A stretch of 64,000 nucleotides of DNA, from contig JAAYEJ010000043.1 in NCBI GenBank assembly GCA_012728835.1, forward strand, positions 1-64,000. The letters run 5' to 3'. The stretch is from Candidatus Brocadiaceae bacterium (GTDB lineage: Bacteria > Planctomycetota > Brocadiia > SM23-32). Shown here in pieces: positions 8,631-20,188 of the stretch; within the stretch, counting starts at the first letter, position 1, and each line of letters starts with the position of its first letter. Below the pieces are notes generated by a model, which worked only from the letters and a program-made list of their open reading frames with translations, had not been told where the DNA came from and searched no databases. The translations under genes were made by a program, and so were the position numbers.

Positions 8631-9836
8631 TCACCGATCGGGGCGACCCCGCCCGCCGCGGCCCGCCTGACCGGGGCGCACGGGGAGGGCGTCCACTGCC
8701 GCGCCGGCCGGCGGCTGGAGTTCCGAGCCGGGCAGCGGGAGTTCAAGGAGTTCGATCGATTCGGCACCCTCGAGCCCGGTCGGTTGGCCGCGTCCCAGGC
8801 CCATGCCCCGCATGTGGCCGTCGAACGCCCCGGGCTCGACGGCGCCCGGGACGATATGCACGCCCGTCATCTCGTCGTCCGACATCGCCCGGAGCATGTC
8901 CGGTTCGGGCGCGACGTGGGGCGTCAGGAAGATGAGCAATTCCGTCTTCACCTTGTCGGTAACGGTGCGGCGGAAGAGCGCGCCGAGGAGGGGGATGTCG
9001 CCCAGGATCGGCACCTTACGGACGCCCTGGGTCTTGCGGTCCTCCATCAGGCCGCCGATGACGATGGTCTGGCCGTCGCGGACGGCGACGCGCGTGGAGG
9101 CCGAACGCTTGTTGATGACGGTTGCGGACAGCGACTCGGAGATCGGCACCGTGCTGTCGGTGACGGCCGAGATCTCGGGGTTGACGTCCATGATGACCAG
9201 GCCGTCGGGGTTGATGTGGGGGGTGACGTTGAGGATGATCCCGATGTCCTGGTACTGGATGGTGTTGATGGTCTGGCCGGTCTCGGTGGTACGCGTATTG
9301 GTGACGAACGGCACCTCGTCGCCGACGGTGATGGTGGCCTGCTGGTTGTCGCTGGCGAGGATGTAGGGGCGCGAGAGGATCTCCAGCTTGCCCTCGATCT
9401 CCAGGGCGCGGATCGTCGCCAGTGCGTCGTCGCCGACCCCGCGGAAGATCAGCCCCTGGGTGGCGCTGGCGACGCCGAAGTCGGTGAACGCCACGGAGTC
9501 GTCGGTCACGTTCGGCAGGTTCAGGACCGAGAACTCGACGCCCAGGTCCACCGTGCGGTCGTGGGTGACTTCGGCGATGAGCACCTTGATGAGGACCTGC
9601 GGCGTGGCCCGGTCCAGGTCGTCCAGGATGGCGCGGACGCGCTCGAAGTTCCCCGGGGCGGTCATGATGAGCAGCGAATTCGTATCGGAGTCGGCCACGA
9701 CCCGGACCTCACCGGCCAGGCTGGCGGCCGCCTGCGACGCGGCCTCCGAGACACTCCTCTGTGCGGCCGCCGCCGCCACCTCGCCGCCGGCCAGCGCCAC
9801 GATGAGCAGACCGCAGAGAATCACCCGTGCGCTCAT
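8631..9836 (-). CDS. gspD: Type II secretion secretin, C-terminal half with its own signal peptide
   Basis: A 401-residue outer-membrane secretin subunit. It begins with its own signal sequence (VILCGLLIVALAGG, cleavage near AAA-AQ), continues with the second half of an N3 domain (VRVVADSDTNSLLIM ... RAILDDLD) and then the complete secretin barrel domain, with the family signature VPILGDIPLLGALFR and a C-terminal Pro/Gly-rich tail. The upstream gene holds N0, N1, N2 and the first half of N3. ATG 9836 overlaps the upstream stop as TGATG; a GTG one codon earlier is an alternative. The separate signal peptide argues for a true two-gene secretin rather than a frameshift. Last gene of the operon. 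Confidence 0.88.
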   Translation of the reverse strand: MSARVILCGLLIVALAGGEVAAAAAQRSVSEAASQAAASLAGEVRVVADSDTNSLLIMTAPGNFERVRAILDDLDRATPQVLIKVLIAEVTHDRTVDLGVEFSVLNLPNVTDDSVAFTDFGVASATQGLIFRGVGDDALATIRALEIEGKLEILSRPYILASDNQQATITVGDEVPFVTNTRTTETGQTINTIQYQDIGIILNVTPHINPDGLVIMDVNPEISAVTDSTVPISESLSATVINKRSASTRVAVRDGQTIVIGGLMEDRKTQGVRKVPILGDIPLLGALFRRTVTDKVKTELLIFLTPHVAPEPDMLRAMSDDEMTGVHIVPGAVEPGAFDGHMRGMGLGRGQPTGLEGAESIELLELPLPGSELQPPAGAAVDALPVRPGQAGRGGRGRPDR

Positions 9837-11248
9837 CACCGTCTCCCTCCCGTTGTCCGGCCTGTTGTCCCGCCGGTCTGTCGTGTCGTCGTGCCGGTTC
9901 TCCGCGTCGTGCCCGTCGTCGTGCGGCCGCGCGTGGTCTGCTCGCTGAACAGGTTGTTCAGGACGCCGGCCAGATCGTCCGCCGTAGCGTTCTTCAGCGG
10001 GTAGACCATCACGCCCTCCTCTTCGGCGGGGTTGGCGTCCAGCTCCCGGATGACCTGTTCCACCACGGCCAGCACGTCGCCCGGCCCGCTGACGACGACG
10101 GTGTTCGTACGCTCGTCGGCGGCGGCGTAGACCCTCTGATTCCGGGCCCCCTCTCCCTCGCCCTGCGGCTGTGCCGCCTGGGGCCCGCGGAACCGCTGAA
10201 CGGCCACCCGGGCCTGCGCCCGCCCGCGGGCGGTCTGGTCCTCCGTCTGGAAGATCTCGTTGATCAGACGGGCGGCCGCCGTCGCATTGGCATACTCGAG
10301 GATGAATACCCTGACCTCCGCCACGGACGACATGTGGGTGTCGAGCACACGCACGATCTGCATGATGCGCCGCACGTTCGCCGCCGTGTCGGTCAGGATC
10401 AGGGAGTTGCTGCTCACGTTGGCCGACATCTCGGCATAGGACGGCAGAAGGGACGCGATGTCTTCCCGCAGCCGGACGGCGTCGGCGTATCGGATGGGAA
10501 TCACCTGCGTGATCATCTCGTCGGTGGCCTCAACGGCCTGGGGATCGCTGCCGGACATCACCGGGATGTTGTGCACCTTGGCCGCGTCCAGGGTGACGAT
10601 GCGCAGGATGCGCCCGGTGCGGATAGCCGCATAGCCGCGCTCCTTGAGCACCGTGTTGAGCAGGAGCACGGCCTCCCGGGCATCCAGGGGCTGCCGGGCC
10701 AGGATGCTCACGCGGCCCTGCACGGGGGCTTCCTGCACGATGACGAACCCGGCCGTTTCGGACAGGTGCTCCAGCACGGCCGAGAGCGGCGCGTCCTGGA
10801 AGTTCATCAGGATGCCGCCCCCTGCCGCTCCCGTCGACGGCGGCGGCTCGACCAGGACGGCGGCCGGGTCTCCGAAGGGCGTCGGCACGCCGAACGGGCC
10901 TTCCCACGTGCGCACCTCACCTCCGAACGGCCGCAGCGGCGCGTCGGGCTCCTCGAGGCCCTGCCGCAGGGCCTCGACTGGCGGCGGCTCGGGCCCGAAC
11001 GGTGCCTCGCCCTCCTCCGGCTCGTCCTCCTCCTCCTCCTCCGGCTCGTCCTCCTCCTCCTCCTCCGGCTCCTCCTCCCGCTGCACCTCGCTCGCCGCCC
11101 CGGCGCCGTTGGGCGCCTCGCCCTGCGTGTCGTCCTGGGCCCATGCCACCGTGCCCGGGGCACCGAGCAGGAACACGAGGAACCAGACGACGCCGGCCCA
11201 GATGAGGCCTCGACCCGACACTCGCCGTCTTCCCGACTTGAGGTTCAT
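9836..11248 (-). CDS. gspD: Type II secretion secretin, N-terminal (N0-N1-N2-half N3) half
   Basis: A 470-residue periplasmic protein. A signal peptide (VVWFLVFLLGA, AWA cut) is followed by a Glu/Pro-rich acidic stretch (about residues 45-75), then secretin N-domains: N0 (MNFQDAPLSAVLEHL), N1 (VIPIRYADAVRLREDI ... NSLILTDTAANVRRI), N2 (RVFILEYANATAAARLI ... NTVVVSGPGDVL) and the first strand-helix of N3 (VMVYPLKNATADDLAGVL). It then ends in a Thr/Arg/Gly-rich tail, which corresponds to the flexible loop inside N3 of one-piece GspD. No barrel domain is present; that is in the next gene. The start overlaps the gspC-like stop by four bases (ATGA). Confidence 0.85.
   Translation of the reverse strand: MNLKSGRRRVSGRGLIWAGVVWFLVFLLGAPGTVAWAQDDTQGEAPNGAGAASEVQREEEPEEEEEDEPEEEEEDEPEEGEAPFGPEPPPVEALRQGLEEPDAPLRPFGGEVRTWEGPFGVPTPFGDPAAVLVEPPPSTGAAGGGILMNFQDAPLSAVLEHLSETAGFVIVQEAPVQGRVSILARQPLDAREAVLLLNTVLKERGYAAIRTGRILRIVTLDAAKVHNIPVMSGSDPQAVEATDEMITQVIPIRYADAVRLREDIASLLPSYAEMSANVSSNSLILTDTAANVRRIMQIVRVLDTHMSSVAEVRVFILEYANATAAARLINEIFQTEDQTARGRAQARVAVQRFRGPQAAQPQGEGEGARNQRVYAAADERTNTVVVSGPGDVLAVVEQVIRELDANPAEEEGVMVYPLKNATADDLAGVLNNLFSEQTTRGRTTTGTTRRTGTTTRQTGGTTGRTTGGRR
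11019..11066 (-). repeat. 24-nt tandem repeat coding for an acidic linker
   Basis: Two perfect 24-base units plus a partial third, inside the N-terminal secretin gene. On the coding strand each unit gives an eight-residue block of Glu/Asp with one Pro. Such in-frame units change copy number by slippage without breaking the frame. Confidence 0.75.
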
Positions 11249-11787
11249 TGTCCCAGCTCCCTCTGCCTTCGTTGTCGCAACCGTTCCAGAAGGTCCGCCG
11301 GCTCGCCCGACAGCGCCGGCGCGCCCTCGCCGCCTGCCGAGGGCGCCCCCACGTCCGTCACTGTCCCTTGTGCGCTGCGGTCCTCCAGGGATCCGCCCAT
11401 CGGCACGGTCAGGGCGCGGTCGCCCTTCGCATACTGGATCGAGTCCATGCCGATCGCAGCCACCCGGCCCTCCAGGATGGCGTCTCCCACCCCGACCTTG
11501 TGAACCTGCCCCGTGCGGGCGTCCTCCAGGAACGCGATCCACCCGTCGCCCTGCCTCATGATGCCCATCAGCACCACCGAGCGTTCGGGCGGCGGCGCGG
11601 CCTCCGGCCGCGGGACCGACCGCGTGACGGTCTCGCGGCGCCCGCGCTCGCGCGAGAAGATGTTGCGCTCGACCAGCACCTCAAAACGCCGCCAGCCGTC
11701 GCCGTCCGGCGCGGGGGCTTCGCCCGCATGGACGACCCCGGCGCTGAGGGCCGCAACCAGAGTGCACGCGATCAGCCGCATCCTCAT
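11245..11787 (-). CDS. gspC: GspC/PilP-like inner-membrane/periplasmic type II secretion component
   Basis: A 180-residue protein with an N-terminal signal/anchor (LIACTLVAALSAGVVHA), then the ERNIFSRER motif typical of the start of GspC homology-region domains, and a beta-rich HR-like domain (VVLMGIMRQGDGWIAFLED ... VGVGDAILEGRVAAIG). GspC links the inner-membrane platform to the N0 domain of the secretin, and here it stands directly before the secretin N-domain gene with a 4-base overlap. It lacks a PDZ domain, like PilP and short GspC forms; the C-terminus is charged and likely disordered. Confidence 0.75.
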   Translation of the reverse strand: MRMRLIACTLVAALSAGVVHAGEAPAPDGDGWRRFEVLVERNIFSRERGRRETVTRSVPRPEAAPPPERSVVLMGIMRQGDGWIAFLEDARTGQVHKVGVGDAILEGRVAAIGMDSIQYAKGDRALTVPMGGSLEDRSAQGTVTDVGAPSAGGEGAPALSGEPADLLERLRQRRQRELGQ

Positions 11788-12368
11788 GTCCCCGGTCCTC
11801 CTGCACCCGCAGCGGCCACGCGGGACGGCCTCGCCGCCTCTCCGGCCGGGGGCGCATACAGCGTCGAGAAGCGCAGTTGAAGCGACAGGTCGTCCCGGCC
11901 CTCCGTGCGCGATCCCAGTTGAAGGTCATGGATGCGCAGCGGCACCTGCGAGGAGTGCATCTCCCAAAGGAACCTCGCAACCGAACGCATCGGCCCCGTG
12001 CCGGCGGCACGGAACGTGATCTGCTTCAGGTCCTCCCCGCCGGCCACCCGCTCCGGCCGGACCGACGCCAGCGACAGCCCCGTCCGCTCCGCCCAGTCGC
12101 GCACGGCGTGCAGCATCTGGCTCTCGGCCTCGGCGGCGTCCTCCTTCATGCCTGCCTGCGTCATCTCGCGCCACCGGCGGGCGGCCGTCTTGCTGCGTTC
12201 GAACAGGTTCAGGGCCTGCTCCGTGTCCTGCATAAGCGTCTGCGCCTCCATGCGAACGCGTTCGCGGCCGTCCAGCACCGGCGTCAGGACATAGTGGTCC
12301 AGCACCAGCAGCACCAGCGCCCCGAGGGCGATGATCGCGATCGTGCGTTCACGACGGGACAGGTTCAC
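11784..12368 (-). CDS. gspM: GspM/PilO-like inner-membrane component
   Basis: A 194-residue bitopic membrane protein: a short basic N-terminus, one membrane segment (IAIIALGALVLLVLDHYVL, about residues 10-28), a coiled-coil helix, then a ferredoxin-like periplasmic domain. This is the layout of GspM and PilO. It starts with GTG three bases after the GspL-like stop and overlaps the gspC-like gene by four bases. Sequence similarity within the family is weak, so the call depends on topology and position between GspL and GspC. Confidence 0.72.
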   Translation of the reverse strand: MNLSRRERTIAIIALGALVLLVLDHYVLTPVLDGRERVRMEAQTLMQDTEQALNLFERSKTAARRWREMTQAGMKEDAAEAESQMLHAVRDWAERTGLSLASVRPERVAGGEDLKQITFRAAGTGPMRSVARFLWEMHSSQVPLRIHDLQLGSRTEGRDDLSLQLRFSTLYAPPAGEAARPSRVAAAGAGGPGT

Positions 12369-12371
12369 GCT

Positions 12372-13754
12372 TCACTCCGTGCCGGTGTAGGTGTAGTTCA
12401 GGCTGAAGGCGACGTCCCGCCCTCCGGCCTGGGCCTCGCGCAGGTAGCGGAACTGCAGGTCCGTCATGGCCTCGGAGCCCTTCAGGCGATCCAGCACGTC
12501 CAGCACCGACCGCTCATCGGCCGCCATGCCGATCACGCTGCCCTCCATGTTCTCCTTGATCCCGACGCTGGTGGCCCAGACGGTTCCCCGTTCGGGAAAC
12601 GTCAGCGTCACCTCGCGCAAGGCTTCGAGGAAGGGCGGCCGCCGATCATACCAGCCCCGGGCGGACGCCGTCCTGTCGATCAGTCTCTCCGCAGCGGCGA
12701 TGTCGTCCTTCATCTCTTCCAGCCACCGGCGGCTCTCCGCCACCTGGCGGGCCTCGGCGCGCCAGTCCAGCACGAAGGCCAGGACGGCCAGCAGGGCCGT
12801 CGCGCAGAGGATGGCGGCCCAGGCGATCGTGCGGGTGCTGCCCGTCTTCACACGCGGCGTCAGGTGCGTGTGAAGAAAGTCCACGGGCGGGTCGGCCTGT
12901 GAAAGGCCGGCCCGGGCCAGCGCCACCGCCGTGCCGAAGCCCGCCGCCCGGTCGATTCCCTGCACGCCGAGGGCGGCCGCGGCGTCGACCGCCGAGGCCT
13001 CCGGCAGGTCCAGCCGGCGCGCCAGGTCGGCTGGGCCCGTGCCGGCGCCGTCCCAGTCGATGGTCCAGACGGCCTCCGGGCCGCTCCACCAGGCGTCGTT
13101 CGGTTGAAGGGCCAGGAGGCGGCGCACCTGCTCGGCCACAGTGCCGGCGGCCAGGGACTTGAGCAGGCGCGGCTGCCGGCGCGAGAACAGCGCACACTCC
13201 CAGCCCTCCGGCGTGCCGCGCAGCAGGACGAGCGGGCTGTCCGGCAGAACGCCGTCGGCGGCCGGCGCGAGCGCCGAGGCCGTCACGGACAGGACCTTCA
13301 GCCCGGCCCCTTCGGCCGCGGCCAGGACCTGGCTGAGCCGGCTGCGCAGAGAGGCGACGATCAGGACGGGGCGCGCTCCTTCGGCGTCCACACGGTCGGC
13401 GAAGTCCACCGAGAGTTCCGAAGGCGGCGAGCTGAAGGCCCGCTCCGCCCGCAGCCGCAGGATGCCCACGAGGGCCTCGCCGGCGGCCGGCGGGATGCTG
13501 TACTCGCGGCTCATCAGCCACGAGGCCGGCAGGCCGATGACGGCCCGGCGGGCGGTGAATGCCTCCCGATCGAGGAACTCCCGCAGGGCCGCCGCCATCC
13601 TGGCCGGCTCCCCGATCCCCGCGTCGGCGGGCGGCACGAACCGGGCCGCACGCGTCACCTCCGGCAGCGGCCGGCCGTCGCGAAGCTCGGCGACCTGCAC
13701 CGCTCCGTCCTCGAAGGCCAGCCCCAGTATCTTGCGCGCGCCGAACATGCTCAC
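12372..13754 (-). CDS. gspL: GspL-like protein: PilM-type actin fold fused to PilN-type membrane domain
   Basis: A 460-residue protein. Residues 1-300 have the actin-like PilM/GspL cytoplasmic fold (LGLAFEDGAVQVAEL at the start, RRAVIGLPASW, near residue 80). Around 320-345 is one membrane helix (IAWAAILCATALLAVLAFVL), followed by a coiled coil and a PilN/fimbrial-assembly-like periplasmic domain. It anchors GspE to the membrane platform. GTG at 13754 overlaps the gspK stop as GTGA; an ATG two codons on is possible. The single-chain PilM-PilN arrangement equals GspL of proteobacterial systems. Confidence 0.78.
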   Translation of the reverse strand: MSMFGARKILGLAFEDGAVQVAELRDGRPLPEVTRAARFVPPADAGIGEPARMAAALREFLDREAFTARRAVIGLPASWLMSREYSIPPAAGEALVGILRLRAERAFSSPPSELSVDFADRVDAEGARPVLIVASLRSRLSQVLAAAEGAGLKVLSVTASALAPAADGVLPDSPLVLLRGTPEGWECALFSRRQPRLLKSLAAGTVAEQVRRLLALQPNDAWWSGPEAVWTIDWDGAGTGPADLARRLDLPEASAVDAAAALGVQGIDRAAGFGTAVALARAGLSQADPPVDFLHTHLTPRVKTGSTRTIAWAAILCATALLAVLAFVLDWRAEARQVAESRRWLEEMKDDIAAAERLIDRTASARGWYDRRPPFLEALREVTLTFPERGTVWATSVGIKENMEGSVIGMAADERSVLDVLDRLKGSEAMTDLQFRYLREAQAGGRDVAFSLNYTYTGTE

Positions 13755-15091
13755 CGGTCTCCGATCATCGTTGCCGTCTTCTCCAGCCCCGAACCGCGCC
13801 GGAGTCCCTCGAGGATCTCCGGCTCCAGCGGCCAGCCCAGGTGCGTCAGGTCGAACCAGGTGAGGACGCGCGGCTCGTCGCCCCGCACGTCGATGATCGC
13901 CCGGAAACGCCGGTAGGCTCGCCCGTCGCCGCTGACGGCCACGACGTCGACCGTCCGCTGGTAGCCCCGCGTCGTGATGTGGCCGCCGATGGCCGCCGCC
14001 TTCTCCGGCGGCAGCGCCTCGGCCACCCAGGCCAGGTTCGTCCGGTCGACCTGGGTGCCCGTGCGGCCGGCCAGCAGCGCGTCCACGTCTCCCTCGTCCA
14101 GTTGCGGCAGGCAGGCGAGCACCTCTCGCGGGGCGGTGTTGACGTTCACCAGGCCCCGCCGCACCTGCTCATCGCTGGTAACAATCCGGTCGGCGATGGT
14201 GGCGAACTCATCGGGCGTCAGGCCCGTGTGCGTGTAGAACTCCAGCACGTTGTCGAACGGACGCCCCGAGCGCACGAGGTCCATCACGGCGAAATAGCGG
14301 TCCTCCGAGAGCGCATCGCGCAGGAGGCCCGAGACCGCCTCCGAGCCGACGGTGTTCACGTTGACCCGGTCCTCGCCGGACTCGGACGTGTTGGGCTCCG
14401 CGCTGAAGACGGTGAGGAAGTCGTAGAAGCCGCGCTCCCCAGCGACCTCCTCATGCGGGTCGATGATGCCGTTCAGGTTCAGGTCCGCCCCGTAGAGGAG
14501 TTCGGGCGTCGCCTCGGCCACGAGCAGGAGTTCGTCGACCGTCTCGAACGGACCGTTCTTGCAGTAGTAGGCGTCGTCGAGCAGGAGGTAGTACTCGCTC
14601 TCGGCGCCGCCGGGCGAGATCTCGTCGTCGGCGTCTCGCCAGTCGATGATCGCGGCGGCCAGCTCGGCCGTCATCTCGGGCAGCTTCAGAAGCATCTCGG
14701 CCGTGGCGGTGTTCAGGTTGACCTTGGCCGCCTCGTCCGTCATTCCATAGCGCCGCACGTTGTTGTCGTTCGGATGGGCGTGCAGAAGCCAGAAATACCC
14801 GTCGCCCACCTGCACGGCCTCGACCTCCGATTCTGAGGCCGCGTCCTCGGATCCCTCGGCGCCCGCCGAGGCGGCCGCCTCGGCGGCCTTGGCCATGGCG
14901 AACGCGAGCGCACCGCGCGCCACCGCCTCGGCCTGAAGCGCGGCCACCTGGTTGGCCGCCGCGACGGCTTCCACGCGCACCGTGCGGCCGAAGACGAGCA
15001 CGAGGCCGGCAATGACCAGCACGATCCACATCGTGACGATCAGCACGGTGCCCCGCCGGCCTGTATGCGCGCTGTGGATGCCTTGCCTCAT
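13751..15091 (-). CDS. gspK: Minor pseudopilin GspK
   Basis: A 446-residue minor pseudopilin. The N-terminus GRRGTVLIVTMWIVLVIAGL is a class III prepilin sequence without the Glu at +5, as is usual for GspK. Helix-hairpin-helix-like repeats follow, with VNLNTATAEMLLKLP and VNVNTAPREVLACLP, and a calcium-loop-like DLNLNGIIDPHEE near residue 195, which matches the calcium sites of GspK. It caps the pseudopilus tip together with GspI and GspJ. It starts 11 bases after gspJ and overlaps the GspL gene. Confidence 0.9.
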   Translation of the reverse strand: MRQGIHSAHTGRRGTVLIVTMWIVLVIAGLVLVFGRTVRVEAVAAANQVAALQAEAVARGALAFAMAKAAEAAASAGAEGSEDAASESEVEAVQVGDGYFWLLHAHPNDNNVRRYGMTDEAAKVNLNTATAEMLLKLPEMTAELAAAIIDWRDADDEISPGGAESEYYLLLDDAYYCKNGPFETVDELLLVAEATPELLYGADLNLNGIIDPHEEVAGERGFYDFLTVFSAEPNTSESGEDRVNVNTVGSEAVSGLLRDALSEDRYFAVMDLVRSGRPFDNVLEFYTHTGLTPDEFATIADRIVTSDEQVRRGLVNVNTAPREVLACLPQLDEGDVDALLAGRTGTQVDRTNLAWVAEALPPEKAAAIGGHITTRGYQRTVDVVAVSGDGRAYRRFRAIIDVRGDEPRVLTWFDLTHLGWPLEPEILEGLRRGSGLEKTATMIGDR

Positions 15092-15101
15092 GACCGGGAC
15101 C

Positions 15102-15818
15102 TCAGCCTCCTCGGCCCGACGCGCCGCCGCTTCCAGCCCCGGCGGCCGGCTGCTCGGGGGCCATGCCGCCGCACGGGATGGCGAACACACGCGTGGCGGC
15201 GTAGCCTTCGGCGCCCTCCGGGGCGCCCGCCTCCGGGGCCAGCGTGAGCGTCACCTCGACGGCCACCGGCAGGCTGTTGTCCATGGACGGCGAATCCCAG
15301 GTCTCCAGCCAGCTCGTCCCGTCCGAATACCACAGGTCCAGGGCGACGACGCCCCGGCACAGGACCTCCTCAACCGGCTCGGGCTCTTCGGGGGCCAGCA
15401 GGTTGGCGGTCATGCGCCGCACCAGCTTGCGGTGTCCCTCCTGGCCCTCCGGGTCGCTGAGCGCAAGCTCCACGCGGACCGTGCCGGCGGGGGTGCCCAG
15501 CAGGCCGCCGCGGGCCGCCCGCACGTACAGGACCAGGCTGTCGAGGTCCTCGCCCGTTTCGCTCACCTCATCGGTGCCGATGCACTCGCCGGCCAGGATG
15601 CCGGTCGGCGGCAGGGCGGCTGCGAGCATCGGGCGCAGCATCTCCATGGCCAGCTCGGCCCGTCGGGGGGGGTTCAGCGCCCTCAGCGTGATGCTGCGCG
15701 CCCGGAACGCCACGTGCAGGGCGGAGTAGAGCGCGCCCGCCAGCATGCTCATCATCCCGAGCGCGAAGAGCATCTCCAGGAGGGTGAAACCGGCCCGGTC
15801 TGTGCGGCGGCGCTGCAT
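15102..15818 (-). CDS. gspJ: Minor pseudopilin GspJ
   Basis: A 238-residue minor pseudopilin with a prepilin peptidase site at G/FTLLE (residues 11-16), Glu at +5 and a hydrophobic helix, then a large globular domain as in GspJ. The start codon shares one base with the gspI stop (TGATG). The C-terminal Gly/Pro tail is low complexity. The I-J-K trio forms the tip complex of the pseudopilus. Confidence 0.87.
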   Translation of the reverse strand: MQRRRTDRAGFTLLEMLFALGMMSMLAGALYSALHVAFRARSITLRALNPPRRAELAMEMLRPMLAAALPPTGILAGECIGTDEVSETGEDLDSLVLYVRAARGGLLGTPAGTVRVELALSDPEGQEGHRKLVRRMTANLLAPEEPEPVEEVLCRGVVALDLWYSDGTSWLETWDSPSMDNSLPVAVEVTLTLAPEAGAPEGAEGYAATRVFAIPCGGMAPEQPAAGAGSGGASGRGG

Positions 15819-16204
15819 CACATGTCCCCCGAATAGGCGAGGGTCGTGATCGACAGCGAGTACTGGCGCCCGCGGGTCGGCCAGGTCACCGTCACGGTCA
15901 CCTGGCGCAACAGCGTATCGGTCCAGTTCTCCACGGTCACCTCCCAACGCCAGCCGGGCCTGTCCGGGCCGAACTCATCGGCCTGGTCTCCGCTCTCCCA
16001 GGTCCCGTCGGCCAGGAGTTCGTTCAGCCTGGCCTCGGCGAGGCCGGCGGCCTGCACACGATCGCGGGCCAGGCCGGCTGCGCCCACCGCCAGGGACACG
16101 CCCTCCATCGCCACAGGCATGATGACCGCCACGAGCGCAAGGCTGGCCAGGACCTCGACCAGCGTGAAACCCGCCCGCCGGGAGCGCGTCGTCCGATGCG
16201 TCAT
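15818..16204 (-). CDS. gspI: Minor pseudopilin GspI
   Basis: A 128-residue minor pseudopilin. The prepilin site is G/FTLVEVLASLALVAV, with Glu at +5. Length and the small beta domain fit GspI. It overlaps gspH by four bases (ATGA) and gspJ by one, so translational coupling along the whole pseudopilin block is likely. Confidence 0.88.
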   Translation of the reverse strand: MTHRTTRSRRAGFTLVEVLASLALVAVIMPVAMEGVSLAVGAAGLARDRVQAAGLAEARLNELLADGTWESGDQADEFGPDRPGWRWEVTVENWTDTLLRQVTVTVTWPTRGRQYSLSITTLAYSGDM

Positions 16205-16701
16205 CGGGGCACCTCGCTTCCGTGCAGGTCGGTGACCTGGAACCTCTCGGTGGCCGACGGACTGGCCACGACGGCCCTGTCGCCCTGCCGGCCGGTGAGC
16301 CGGATCGTGGCCGCATCGACGCGCCCGGTCGGCTGGAAGGTGATGTGGCCGGAGTCGGTGCTCAGTTCCATCCGGACGCCGTCGGGCAGCCGGAACGTGC
16401 GCCCGAACTCCGTCTCCAGCCGCTCGAAGTCCCCTCCGCCCTGAACCGTGAGCCAGTAGGTGCCCTCGACGGGATCGAGGTTCAGGCGGTAGACGCGGCC
16501 CTCGCTGATCGCCTGCGAACGTGCAAGTTCCGTCAGGGCAACGAGATAGGCGGCCGTGTCCTGCGTCTGCCGCGAGGCGAAGAAGCCGCGCAGGGACGGG
16601 GCGGCCATGGCGAGCACCGTGCAGATGACCACCATGACGAGGACGAGTTCCAGCAGCGTGAACCCGCCGCGCCCGCCGCCGATGTCCGCGCCGCGCGCCA
16701 T
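16201..16701 (-). CDS. gspH: Minor pseudopilin GspH
   Basis: A 166-residue pseudopilin with the cleavage site G/FTLLELVLVMVV and a GspH/FimT-type beta domain (YRLNLDPVEGTYWL, ITFQPTGRVD). FimT/GspH proteins sit below the tip complex. The start is one base after the gspG stop. Confidence 0.88.
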   Translation of the reverse strand: MARGADIGGGRGGFTLLELVLVMVVICTVLAMAAPSLRGFFASRQTQDTAAYLVALTELARSQAISEGRVYRLNLDPVEGTYWLTVQGGGDFERLETEFGRTFRLPDGVRMELSTDSGHITFQPTGRVDAATIRLTGRQGDRAVVASPSATERFQVTDLHGSEVPR

Positions 16702-16702
16702 G

Positions 16703-17152
16703 TCACCGCTCCGACCAGTTGTCGACGTCGTCGCCCCCGCCGTCCTGGCCGTCCGGACCGCGGGAGTGGAGGTCGTAGCCGTCCGTGTTGTAGTCGCCGG
16801 GGTACTTGTACATGTACTCCCTGCCCCAGGGGTCCAGCGGGACGGTACGGCTGATGTACGGCCCGCCCCAGCTGACGGCGTCGACGGGCTCTTCGACCAG
16901 CGCGGCCAGTCCTTCCTCGGTCGTCGGGTAGCGGCCGTTGTCGATCTCGAACATGTCCAGTGCGGTCTGCAGGCTCGCGATTCCCGTTCGGGCCGCGGTG
17001 ATGCGCGCCTGCTCGGACCGCCGGGCGAACTTCGGCACCACGACCGCAGCCAGCACGCTCAGGATCACCAACACCAGCAGAAGCTCGATCAGCGTGAAGC
17101 CGCCGCGGCCGGCAGCCCGGCGTCGGTTCTGTCGCGTCGTCCGTCGGTTCAT
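16703..17152 (-). CDS. gspG: Major pseudopilin GspG
   Basis: A 149-residue major pseudopilin. The cleavage site is G/FTLIELLLVLVILSVL. The GspG core is clear: NGRYPTTEEGLAAL, GGPYI, DPWGREYMYKYPG and a C-terminal Asp-rich DGQDGGGDDVDNW that forms the GspG calcium site. ATG 17152 has an AGGGAG about ten bases upstream; an in-frame ATG at 17179 overlapping the gspF stop is the alternative and would lengthen the leader to 27 residues. Confidence 0.93.
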   Translation of the reverse strand: MNRRTTRQNRRRAAGRGGFTLIELLLVLVILSVLAAVVVPKFARRSEQARITAARTGIASLQTALDMFEIDNGRYPTTEEGLAALVEEPVDAVSWGGPYISRTVPLDPWGREYMYKYPGDYNTDGYDLHSRGPDGQDGGGDDVDNWSER

Positions 17153-17175
17153 TGCGTCGTTCTCCCTCGGTCTTC

Positions 17176-18390
17176 TCATCGGATCAACTCCTGAAGCGTG
17201 AACACGGGCAGCAACATGCCGATGACCACCAGCCCGATCAGGGCGGCCATCAGGAACAGGAGCGCCGGCTCGGCCAGCGCCACGAGCATGCGCAGGCGTC
17301 GGTCCAGGTCGCCCTCATAGGAGGCGGCCAGGCGCACCATCTCCTTGTCCAGCCGCCCCGTCTGCTCGGCCACGGCGGTCATCTCCGCCACGGACGGAGG
17401 GAACAGCTCGGGACTGGCCGCGAGGCTGGCGGACAGCGAACTGCCCTGCTGCACCTCACTCGTGGCGCGGTCGACGGCGTCGCTGAGCGTCTGGTTTCCG
17501 ATGGCCTCCTTGGCCACGCGAAGGGCGGCGATCAGCGGCACGCCGGCCCCCAGAAGCGTCCCCAGCATCCGGCAGAAGCGCACCAGCGCGAACCGTGCGG
17601 ACACGGTCCCGACGCCGGGGGTGTGCAGCACCATGCGCTCGAAGGTGCGCCGGCCCGATTCGGACGAGAGCGCCCGCCTGGACACGACCACGAGCACGGC
17701 CACGACGGCGGCGATCGCCAGGCCGTTCCTCACGATGAAGCGGCTGGCCCCCACGATGGCCTTGGTCAGCCAGGGGAGCGCCCCGCCGAACTCCTCGAAC
17801 ACGCCCGAGAACCGCGGGATGAAGTAGGCCATCAGGAACGCCAGCACGCCGGCAGCCAGAACCGCCAGCACCACGGGGTATACCAACGCCGCCTTCACCC
17901 GACCGACCAGATCCTGCTCGCGCGAGCGGAACTCGGCGATCTGCTCCAGCACCAGGTCCAGGAATCCGCCGGCCTCGCCCGCACGCACCATGGCCACGTG
18001 GACGGGCGGAAACGAGGCCGGCCAGCGCGCCAGCGCGTCCGCCAGCGAGTCGCCGTCGGCCACCGAGTCGTGGATCGCCTGCCACTGCCGCCGCGCCGCC
18101 GCATGCGCCGCCTGGCCGCTGAGGATCGAGAGCGCGCGGCTCAGCGAGACGCCGGCGGCCAGCAGGTTGGCCAGCTCGCGCGTGAACGCGTCCACCGTCG
18201 CACGCGAGACCTTCCCCGGCCGCCCGCCCGTGCGCCCCCGCGCACCAGCCGGCGCCGAGTCCTCCACGGCCACGGGCGTCAGGCCGCGCGCCTCCAGTTC
18301 GTCCAGCGCGGCGGCACGGCCGTCGGCCGTGAGGCTTCCGGCCACCTCACGGCCGGCCTGGTCCACCGCTCTGTAGGCAAACGTCGCCAT
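17176..18390 (-). CDS. gspF: Type II secretion inner-membrane platform protein GspF
   Basis: A 404-residue polytopic protein with the two tandem GspF domains (each with about 120 cytoplasmic residues and FxxELAxLLxAGxxL, seen as FTRELANLLAAGVSL near residue 70) and three membrane segments, the last near the C-terminus (ALLFLMAALIGLVVIGML). It couples the GspE ATPase to pseudopilus assembly. It starts 25 bases after gspE; its stop is overlapped by the alternative gspG start. Confidence 0.93.
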   Translation of the reverse strand: MATFAYRAVDQAGREVAGSLTADGRAAALDELEARGLTPVAVEDSAPAGARGRTGGRPGKVSRATVDAFTRELANLLAAGVSLSRALSILSGQAAHAAARRQWQAIHDSVADGDSLADALARWPASFPPVHVAMVRAGEAGGFLDLVLEQIAEFRSREQDLVGRVKAALVYPVVLAVLAAGVLAFLMAYFIPRFSGVFEEFGGALPWLTKAIVGASRFIVRNGLAIAAVVAVLVVVSRRALSSESGRRTFERMVLHTPGVGTVSARFALVRFCRMLGTLLGAGVPLIAALRVAKEAIGNQTLSDAVDRATSEVQQGSSLSASLAASPELFPPSVAEMTAVAEQTGRLDKEMVRLAASYEGDLDRRLRMLVALAEPALLFLMAALIGLVVIGMLLPVFTLQELIR

Positions 18391-18415
18391 CGGGTCGTCC
18401 TGCCCTGAATGCGTA

Positions 18416-20122
18416 TCACACCGGAAGGGAGCCGTTGCCGCGTTCGTCGCGCGTCACCCGCACGACCTCCTGCACGCTCGTGCGCCCCGCCGCCACGTGC
18501 CGCCAGCCGTCCTGCCGGAGGCTCTTCATCCCCTGCTCGATCGCCAGGCGGCGAATCTGGCGGGAGGACACGTTGCGCAGGATCATCTCGCGCATCTCGT
18601 CGGTCACGGGCATCAGTTCGAAGACCCCCTGCCGGCCGCGATAGCCCGTCCGGAGGCATTCGCGGCATCCGCGCCCGATGAACACCCTCTGCGGAATCTC
18701 GTCGCCGACCATCTGGCGCAGCTTCTCCCACTCGGCGCGCGAGCACTCGTCTTTGCACTCGGGGCAGATGCAGCGCACAAGGCGCTGCGCCAGCACGGCC
18801 TCCAGCGACGAGGCCACCAGGTAGGGCTCCACCCCCATGTCCACAAGACGCGTCAGCGCACCGGGGGCGTCGTTGGTGTGCAGCGTGCTGAAGACAAGAT
18901 GGCCCGTCAGAGAGGCCTGCACGGCGATCTCGGCCGTCTCCAGGTCGCGGATCTCGCCCACGAGCACGACGTCCGGGTCGTGCCGCAGGATGGACCGCAG
19001 CCCGAGGGCGAACGTCAGCCCCGCCTTCGTGGACACCTGAATCTGGTTGATGCCGCGCAGGTGGTATTCGACCGGGTCCTCGATGGTGATGATCTTGCGG
19101 TCGATGTCGTTGATGCGCGAGAGGCCCGCGTAGAGGGTCGTCGTCTTGCCGCTCCCGGTCGGGCCGGTCACGAGCATGATCCCGTGCGGGACCTGGAGGA
19201 TGCGCTCGAACTGCCGGCAGTCCTCGTCGGACATCCCGAGACTCTCCAACCCGAGGAGGGCCCCGCTGCGGTCCAGCAGGCGCAGCACCACGGCCTCGCC
19301 GTGAAGCATGGGGATGACCGAGGCCCGCACGTCCACGTCGTGGCCGCCGGCCTTGAGGCGGATGCGGCCGTCCTGGGGCAGCCGTTTCTCGGCGATGTCC
19401 AGGCGGCTCATGATCTTCAGGCGCGAGACGATGGCGGCCTGGAAGCGCCGCACCTCCGGCGGGATCACGGCCTCCTGCAGGATGCCGTCGACGCGGTAGC
19501 GCACGCGGAGCTGGTCCTCAAACGGCTCGAAGTGCACGTCCGTCGCCCGCAGATCGATCGCCTCGGTCAGCACCTGGTTCACCAGCCGGATGATCGAGGC
19601 GTCCTCGGCCGCAGCGGCCAGGTCGACCGTGCCGTCCGTGTCGACGTCGATGACCTGGACGTTGTCCCCGTCGGCCTCCGAGACGAGCGACTGGACGGTG
19701 TCGGCCCCGACGCCGAGGAAACTGCGCAGGCAGCGGTTGATCTCCTCGGACGTCGCCGCCGCCGGGCGCAGGTTGCGGCCGGTGACCAGCCGCAATTCGT
19801 CCAGACCCGTCGTGTCCGAGAGCCGGCTGGTGGCCACCGTCACGCAGCCATCGTCCTCGCGCACGGGCAGCAGGCCGTGCTTTAGAAGCAGGCGTGCGGG
19901 GAACCGGGACACGACCTCCCGGCTGGGCGGGTCGGCCTCCAGGTCCGCGTACGGGATGTCGAACTCCCGGGCGAGGAACCGCAGGACCTCGTCCTCGGGC
20001 AGCCCCGCCTCGCGCAGCGCCTCGTCCAGCGGCGTGCCCGCCTGCTGAAGGCGCCGGACCTCGGCCGCCGAGTCGGCGGCGACGAGGCCCGCACCGCACA
20101 TCTTCGTCAGGATGTCGTTCAT
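18416..20122 (-). CDS. gspE: Type II secretion ATPase GspE
   Basis: A 568-residue GspE/PulE ATPase. The N-terminal N1E/MshEN domain (LAREFDIPYADLE) is followed by the ATPase core: Walker A GPTGSGKTT, the Asp box (KIITIEDPVEY), Walker B-like DPDVVLVGEIRD, the His box (GHLVFSTLHTNDA) and a four-Cys zinc motif (CICPEC ... GCREC). It powers pseudopilus growth. ATG 20122 is used; an in-frame GTG at 20131 would add three residues. It is the second gene of the operon, 66 bases after the small secreted protein. Confidence 0.93.
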   Translation of the reverse strand: MNDILTKMCGAGLVAADSAAEVRRLQQAGTPLDEALREAGLPEDEVLRFLAREFDIPYADLEADPPSREVVSRFPARLLLKHGLLPVREDDGCVTVATSRLSDTTGLDELRLVTGRNLRPAAATSEEINRCLRSFLGVGADTVQSLVSEADGDNVQVIDVDTDGTVDLAAAAEDASIIRLVNQVLTEAIDLRATDVHFEPFEDQLRVRYRVDGILQEAVIPPEVRRFQAAIVSRLKIMSRLDIAEKRLPQDGRIRLKAGGHDVDVRASVIPMLHGEAVVLRLLDRSGALLGLESLGMSDEDCRQFERILQVPHGIMLVTGPTGSGKTTTLYAGLSRINDIDRKIITIEDPVEYHLRGINQIQVSTKAGLTFALGLRSILRHDPDVVLVGEIRDLETAEIAVQASLTGHLVFSTLHTNDAPGALTRLVDMGVEPYLVASSLEAVLAQRLVRCICPECKDECSRAEWEKLRQMVGDEIPQRVFIGRGCRECLRTGYRGRQGVFELMPVTDEMREMILRNVSSRQIRRLAIEQGMKSLRQDGWRHVAAGRTSVQEVVRVTRDERGNGSLPV

Positions 20123-20188
20123 GAACCCCACACTGCGCAGTCCGGCGGCCCCGCCGTGCGGACGGCCGCCGGACCGCGCCCAGGGATG

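What the first reader, a model, noticed from the sequence alone, without database searches (positions are those of the whole stretch)
8631..11248. Secretin split inside the N3 domain, each half with its own signal peptide
The N-terminal gene ends after the first half of N3, in the Thr/Arg/Gly-rich stretch that corresponds to the flexible N3 loop. The next gene starts with a new signal peptide and resumes with the second half of N3 and the barrel. A simple frameshift would not create a signal peptide. The two chains would have to complete one N3 fold in the periplasm, which implies a ring of 12-15 heteromeric subunits.
Basis: partly seen in the sequence, partly recalled or inferred. Interest (0 to 1): 0.62.

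Follow-up and report, generated by a model that had tools for sequence, protein, structure and literature searches.

The report
Secretin split across two exported proteins
The ring-shaped outer-membrane gate of a bacterial export machine is made here from two separately exported proteins that appear to share one folded domain, and the same cut has happened independently and is widely kept in a second bacterial phylum, so the cut is a workable design and not damage.

Summary
Observation confirmed. Within an intact gspE-to-gspM type II secretion operon (window minus strand), the secretin is two genes. Chain A (11248-9836, 470 aa) carries a signal peptide, N0-N1-N2, the first half of N3 and a Thr/Arg/Gly tail. 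Chain B (9836-8631, 401 aa) starts at a TGATG overlap with its own Shine-Dalgarno site and signal peptide, then the second half of N3 and the barrel. The cut lies in the N3 loop that is unresolved in PulD.

All 43 distinct orthologues compared in Planctomycetota and near relatives, three in the same family, are continuous there, and none of the loops measured has a signal-peptide-like stretch. But the orthologous operon of Verrucomicrobiota is split at the same loop in all 39 distinct loci checked, always with a signal peptide on chain B. N3a stays as constrained there as in continuous proteins. Trees favour two independent splits (200/200 bootstraps), but an AU test on the secretin does not exclude one.

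Verrucomicrobial pairs also share two motifs flanking the cut, almost absent from continuous loops and from the window. Most likely A and B assemble a mixed C15 ring with N3 completed between chains; that step is inferred. No earlier description was found; rhizobial RhcC1/RhcC2 arose differently.

The parts
9836..11248 (-). gspD-A (chain A, 470 aa): signal peptide, acidic linker, N0, N1, N2, first half of N3, Thr/Arg/Gly-rich tail
11138..11248 (-). chain A signal peptide (residues 1-37)
   Evidence: sequence
11012..11077 (-). chain A acidic Glu/Pro repeat between signal peptide and N0
   Evidence: sequence
10598..10807 (-). N0 domain (PF21305, residues 148-217)
10334..10513 (-). N1 domain (approx.)
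10037..10321 (-). N2 domain with its own loop (residues 310-404)
9947..10018 (-). N3a: first strand and helix of N3 (EGVMVYPLKNATADDLAGVLNNLF)
9839..9946 (-). chain A C-terminal Thr/Arg/Gly tail (upstream half of the N3 loop); repeats at 9844-9925
9834..9838 (-). TGATG stop/start overlap (translational coupling)
9845..9851 (-). GGGAGGG Shine-Dalgarno-like run, 8 nt before chain B ATG
8631..9836 (-). gspD-B (chain B, 401 aa): signal peptide, short loop remnant, second half of N3, secretin barrel, C-terminal tail
9762..9836 (-). chain B signal peptide MSARVILCGLLIVALAGGEVAAAAA
9711..9761 (-). chain B head QRSVSEAASQAAASLAG (downstream half of the N3 loop)
   Evidence: aligns with relatives' loop ends
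9597..9710 (-). N3b: second and third strands and second helix of N3
8913..9407 (-). secretin barrel/gate domain (PF00263)
11245..11787 (-). GspC-like gene directly upstream (no Pfam hit; ends ...LLERLRQRRQRELGQ as does its counterpart in L011)
11784..20131 (-). rest of the T2SS operon: M-like, unnamed (L position), K, J, I, H, G, F, E

Best explanation
A two-gene GspD. Shown from sequence: the operon encodes an intact secretin in two translationally coupled ORFs, both with Sec signal peptides, cut in the N3 loop. Inferred: both chains are exported; chain B forms the outer-membrane barrel; the N3a strand-helix at the C-terminus of chain A packs against the strand-strand-helix of N3b in chain B to complete N3; 15 A + 15 B then make the usual C15 secretin, with the two new chain ends lying where the disordered N3 loop lies in ordinary secretins. 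The split arose in the window's planctomycete lineage by gain of a start codon, ribosome-binding site and signal peptide inside the loop, and a second time, much earlier, in Verrucomicrobiota, where it is conserved.
For: Cut at GspD profile position ~285 with no loss of profile on either side. Own signal peptide, start, Shine-Dalgarno site and coupled TGATG. Intact operon, all minus strand. Same split with chain B signal peptides in 39/39 distinct verrucomicrobial loci, two of them on contigs of more than 2.6 and 3.0 Mb. Same operon in both phyla: gspF lies 8-10 kb upstream of the secretin in the genomes compared. Chain A stop to chain B start varies from 4 to 98 nt (once 335) and the relative frame varies in Verrucomicrobiota, which excludes programmed frameshifting there. 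N3a is as constrained relative to the barrel in split (0.473/0.548 = 0.86) as in continuous proteins (0.517/0.614 = 0.84). AlphaFold of a split verrucomicrobial pair, split-only alignment: N3a and N3b confident (pLDDT 84-91) with a disordered linker. Independent origin: two changes in 200/200 bootstrap trees; GspF puts the window inside Planctomycetota (99/98) and rejects joining it to Verrucomicrobiota, AU p = 0.007. The cut maps to the PulD loop (chain residues ~285-303), reported as unresolved at 288-303 (PMC6882859).
Against: Cross-chain N3 completion was not seen directly: no complex prediction, no coordinates, and Foldseek matched N3b alone. No second genome of the window's genus is held, so conservation of the window's own split is untested. 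The AU test on the secretin itself does not reject a single origin (p 0.28). The chain A tail is repetitive with odd codon usage. The genome has six further secretin matches, five over the Pfam cut-off, so this copy could be redundant.
Confidence: 0.8

Rival explanations
1. Sequencing or assembly error, or a recent frameshift, in one continuous gspD; the signal peptide is chance.
For: Close relatives are continuous. The break sits beside slippage-prone tandem repeats whose codon usage favours the chain B frame.
Against: Restoring one frame would still leave a 25-residue cleavable-looking signal peptide, with ATG and ribosome-binding site, inside the loop; none of 42 continuous loops has one (max 1.65 v 3.27). 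The third frame lacks coding codon usage there. Both halves are otherwise intact. Verrucomicrobiota have the same arrangement.
Confidence: 0.08
2. Two functional genes, but chain A works as a separate periplasmic ring or adaptor (as proposed for rhizobial RhcC1) and chain B is a self-sufficient short secretin; N3 is not completed between chains.
For: Precedent of RhcC1/RhcC2, two genes of complementary function (PMC3459982). Short secretins exist.
Against: RhcC1/RhcC2 have different ancestries and RhcC2 has its own BON domain; here both halves are one GspD cut inside a domain with no duplication. N3a keeps its constraint in Verrucomicrobiota, not expected of a useless tail.
Confidence: 0.12
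3. The window's split was inherited or transferred from the verrucomicrobial split secretin: one origin.
For: The AU test on the secretin does not reject one clade (p 0.28-0.58).
Against: Chain B is 70% identical to the same-family continuous L009 and lacks both verrucomicrobial flank motifs. 0 of 200 bootstrap trees show one origin. GspF of the same operon rejects grouping with Verrucomicrobiota. A single vertical origin would need many re-fusions.
Confidence: 0.1

Closest known systems
[quoted passage not shown]
   Same: N0-N1-N2-N3-barrel content and order, operon context, loop position of the cut
   Different: Encoded by two genes, each with a signal peptide, N3 divided between them; neither half reaches the TIGR02517 cut-off (171 and 259 v 351 bits), nor do the halves of the verrucomicrobial pair
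RhcC1/RhcC2 split secretin of rhizobial type III secretion
   Same: N-terminal and pore parts on separate genes (PMC3574062, PMC3973906)
   Different: Arose by partial replacement with a Tad-type secretin; the two genes have distinct origins, lie apart, and no domain is reported as cut in two (PMC3459982)
Continuous GspD orthologues of Planctomycetota (L009-L012, L041-L083)
   Same: Orthologous, up to 70% identical in N3b plus barrel; same operon where checked
   Different: One gene; N3 loop without signal peptide

Membership tests
T2SS secretin GspD | Full N0-N1-N2-N3-barrel content in order | tested here: met
   met by the pair jointly: TIGR02517 1-287 + 284-599 of 600; Pfam N0, Secretin_N, Secretin
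T2SS secretin GspD | Single polypeptide above the TIGR02517 cut-off | tested here: not met
   171 and 259 bits v 351; so not filed as an ordinary GspD but as a two-gene variant
T2SS secretin GspD | Located in a T2SS operon | tested here: met
   E, F, G, H, I, J, K and M-like by Pfam; the C- and L-position genes gave no Pfam hit
T2SS secretin GspD | Forms a C15 outer-membrane ring | not testable with these tools
   needs purification and cryo-EM
Split secretin with N3 completed in trans | Both halves have export signals | tested here: met
   window chains A and B; chain B signal peptide in 39/39 distinct verrucomicrobial loci
Split secretin with N3 completed in trans | Half-domain N3a kept under constraint after the split | tested here: met
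   for Verrucomicrobiota; in the window N3a is 62% identical to four relatives (other segments 65-67%)
Split secretin with N3 completed in trans | N3a and N3b pack into one fold | tested here: inconclusive
   both halves confident in AF2 of a read-through pair; no contacts visible; Foldseek aligned N3b only
Rhizobial RhcC1/RhcC2 type | Halves of different ancestry | tested here: not met
   both window halves match the same GspD model contiguously and the same continuous orthologues

The most novel reading that the evidence does not exclude
A whole lineage of Verrucomicrobiota, and independently this planctomycete, build their T2SS gate as a 15+15 hetero-oligomer in which one N3 domain is shared by two exported chains. 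In Verrucomicrobiota the new chain ends, lying at or in the pore, gained paired motifs (chain A tail [NSTD]-x-L-x-x-R, 36/39; chain B head Y-x3-6-G-x-A, 38/39; each 1/43 in continuous loops) that dock the halves or gate the channel, so the split separates targeting of the barrel from assembly of the periplasmic rings.
Probability: 0.35. Interest if true: 0.8.

Novelty: new variant of a known kind. Interest (0 to 1): 0.62.

Why it matters
It would be a natural, evolutionarily repeated bisection of a large homo-oligomeric membrane gate inside a structural domain, giving a direct test of how secretin N-rings and barrel are assembled and coupled. It also means gene-by-gene annotation can miss the secretin in Verrucomicrobiota: in the window pair and in the one verrucomicrobial pair scanned, neither half passes the GspD cut-off.

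Tried and rejected
A duplicated source for the signal-peptide DNA in the own genome: only 16-45 nt GC-rich partial matches, source unknown. Programmed frameshift: frame relation and spacing vary in Verrucomicrobiota. Reading the signal-peptide DNA in the third frame as an ancestral loop (DERTGDSLRSAHRGAGRRRGGGG): loop-like, but codon usage is against it. Other short secretin frames in class relatives (L155-L157, L159) are inovirus-like or broken in the barrel, not N3 splits. Foldseek of the short N3 construct could not test cross-half packing. The secretin tree alone cannot fix the window's exact place. Two class hits (G488, G585) and other unfetched verrucomicrobial hits were not read individually; of the 14 unfetched, three were read later (L122-L124, split), and the rest except G488 and G585 have open frames of 390-486 aa.

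Full report
What is there. The window's minus strand holds an intact T2SS operon, E-F-G-H-I-J-K-(L position)-M-(C-like), followed by the secretin. The secretin is two ORFs. Chain A (11248-9836) ends ...VMVYPLKNATADDLAGVLNNLFSEQTTRGRTTTGTTRRTGTTTRQTGGTTGRTTGGRR*. Chain B begins at the overlapping ATG (TGATG) with MSARVILCGLLIVALAGGEVAAAAAQRSVSEAASQAAASLAGEVRVVADSDTNSLLIM.... Against the GspD model the two halves tile positions 1-287 and 284-599 of 600. A GGGAGGG run precedes chain B's ATG by 8 nt.

Is it damage or error? The signal peptide is the key. Its hydrophobic core scores 3.27; the N3 loops of 42 continuous relatives average 0.40 and never exceed 1.65. No single indel could create or remove it, and its codons fit the operon's codon usage in the chain B frame only. 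The caveat is that chain A's tail is a repeat tract with low GC3, where codon usage would favour the other frame. By amino acids the chain A frame is the one that matches relatives (L012 ...TTQQSRTGATATQRSGTTQTT).

Relatives. The genome is a Planctomycetota MAG whose own genus has no second genome held. Orthologues in three same-family genomes, one other-family genome of the class, and the phylum-wide and named-contig set (43 distinct in all; a few are MAGs labelled TA06 or Omnitrophota that cluster with them) are all continuous through the N3 loop.

The unexpected part. The two verrucomicrobial hits of the named-genome scan (L052, L053) showed the same split. Taking the genome of L052 as centre, every locus read (39 distinct) is split in the same loop: chain A ends 24-49 residues after the end of the N3a match, chain B starts with a canonical signal peptide, usually ending AQ. 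Hydrophobicity of chain B starts (minimum 1.9) and continuous loops (maximum 1.65) do not overlap. Spacing and relative frame vary, so each chain is separately initiated. The query came from a split protein, but it matches the barrel, and the same search recovers continuous planctomycete proteins, so continuous verrucomicrobial orthologues should have been seen. Two of the class hits with long open frames (G488, G585) were not read.

One origin or two. In the careful tree on 549 columns the split label changes twice in all 200 bootstraps. AU tests on the secretin do not reject one clade, so the secretin alone is not decisive. GspF from the same operons separates the phyla (99/98), puts the window with its own family (89/85) and rejects joining it to Verrucomicrobiota, p = 0.007. 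The window's chain B is 70% identical to the same-family continuous L009 and lacks the verrucomicrobial flank motifs. Two origins is the better reading.

Does it work as one secretin? N3a is kept in Verrucomicrobiota at the same relative conservation as in continuous proteins (0.86 v 0.84 of barrel identity), with the same V-x-V-[YF]-x-L-x-N ... L-x-x-[LM]-F pattern. AlphaFold of a read-through pair with a split-only alignment gives strand-helix (N3a), a disordered ~120-residue stretch, then strand-strand-helix (N3b): the N3 topology, with pLDDT about 60-81 in the long model and 84-91 in the short one. Coordinates are not returned and Foldseek aligned N3b alone, so packing across chains is inferred from homology with solved GspD N3, not shown. 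In PulD the same loop (after ...AADLVEVLT, chain residue 284; before residue ~303) is among the unresolved ones, 288-303 (PMC6882859); the two numberings were taken as the same and may differ by a few residues. In pIV the disordered N3 loop points into the pore (PMC8563730). The two new chain ends therefore probably sit at or in the lumen.

A possible adaptation. Verrucomicrobial chain A tails carry [NSTD]-x-L-x-x-R in 36/39 and chain B heads Y-x3-6-G-x-A in 38/39; continuous loops have each in 1/43 (the scanned patterns were slightly looser). The deepest verrucomicrobial branch (L121) is split but lacks both, so the motifs may have come after the split. The link to docking is a hypothesis.

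Known or new. A full-text search of the open library found split secretins only for rhizobial T3SS and their relatives in P. syringae, where the two genes have separate origins (PMC3459982). The library lacks most subscription papers. This is a new variant of a known kind: T2SS secretins bisected within N3, conserved in Verrucomicrobiota and parallel in the window.

Noticed in passing
window 9844-9925: Tandem repeats (periods 9-18) and low GC3 in the last ~30 codons of chain A; codon usage there favours the chain B frame, hinting at recent slippage or a repeat expansion.
   Followed up: partly
L084-L124 (Verrucomicrobiota): Chain A tails and chain B heads carry conserved short motifs flanking the cut ([NSTD]xLxxR; Yx3-6GxA), absent from nearly all continuous loops.
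   Followed up: partly
L115, L112, L103, L108, L105, L107: Chain B heads with FG/GF repeats (up to FGGFGGFGGFGGFGG) just after the signal peptide, expected in or near the pore; FG-nucleoporin-like low complexity.
   Followed up: partly
window 11012-11077: Chain A has a Glu/Pro repeat (EEEPEEEEEDEPEEEEEDEPEE) between signal peptide and N0.
   Followed up: no
TIGR02517 scores: Neither half of the window pair or of the scanned verrucomicrobial pair passes NCBI's GspD cut-off, so automated annotation may report such T2SS as lacking a secretin.
   Followed up: no
L155-L157 (G038 C1, C34, C27): A class relative carries repeated inovirus-like elements: pIV-like secretin next to a Zot/pI-like ATPase frame (GKIGSGKTYYAV).
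   Followed up: no
L159 (G028:C1 ~870776-871587): Secretin with the barrel broken between two frames (528 + 201 aa), a probable pseudogene in a complete-looking contig.
   Followed up: no
own genome, contigs C67, C41, C11, C12: Six further secretin-domain matches in the window's genome, five over the Pfam cut-off.
   Followed up: no
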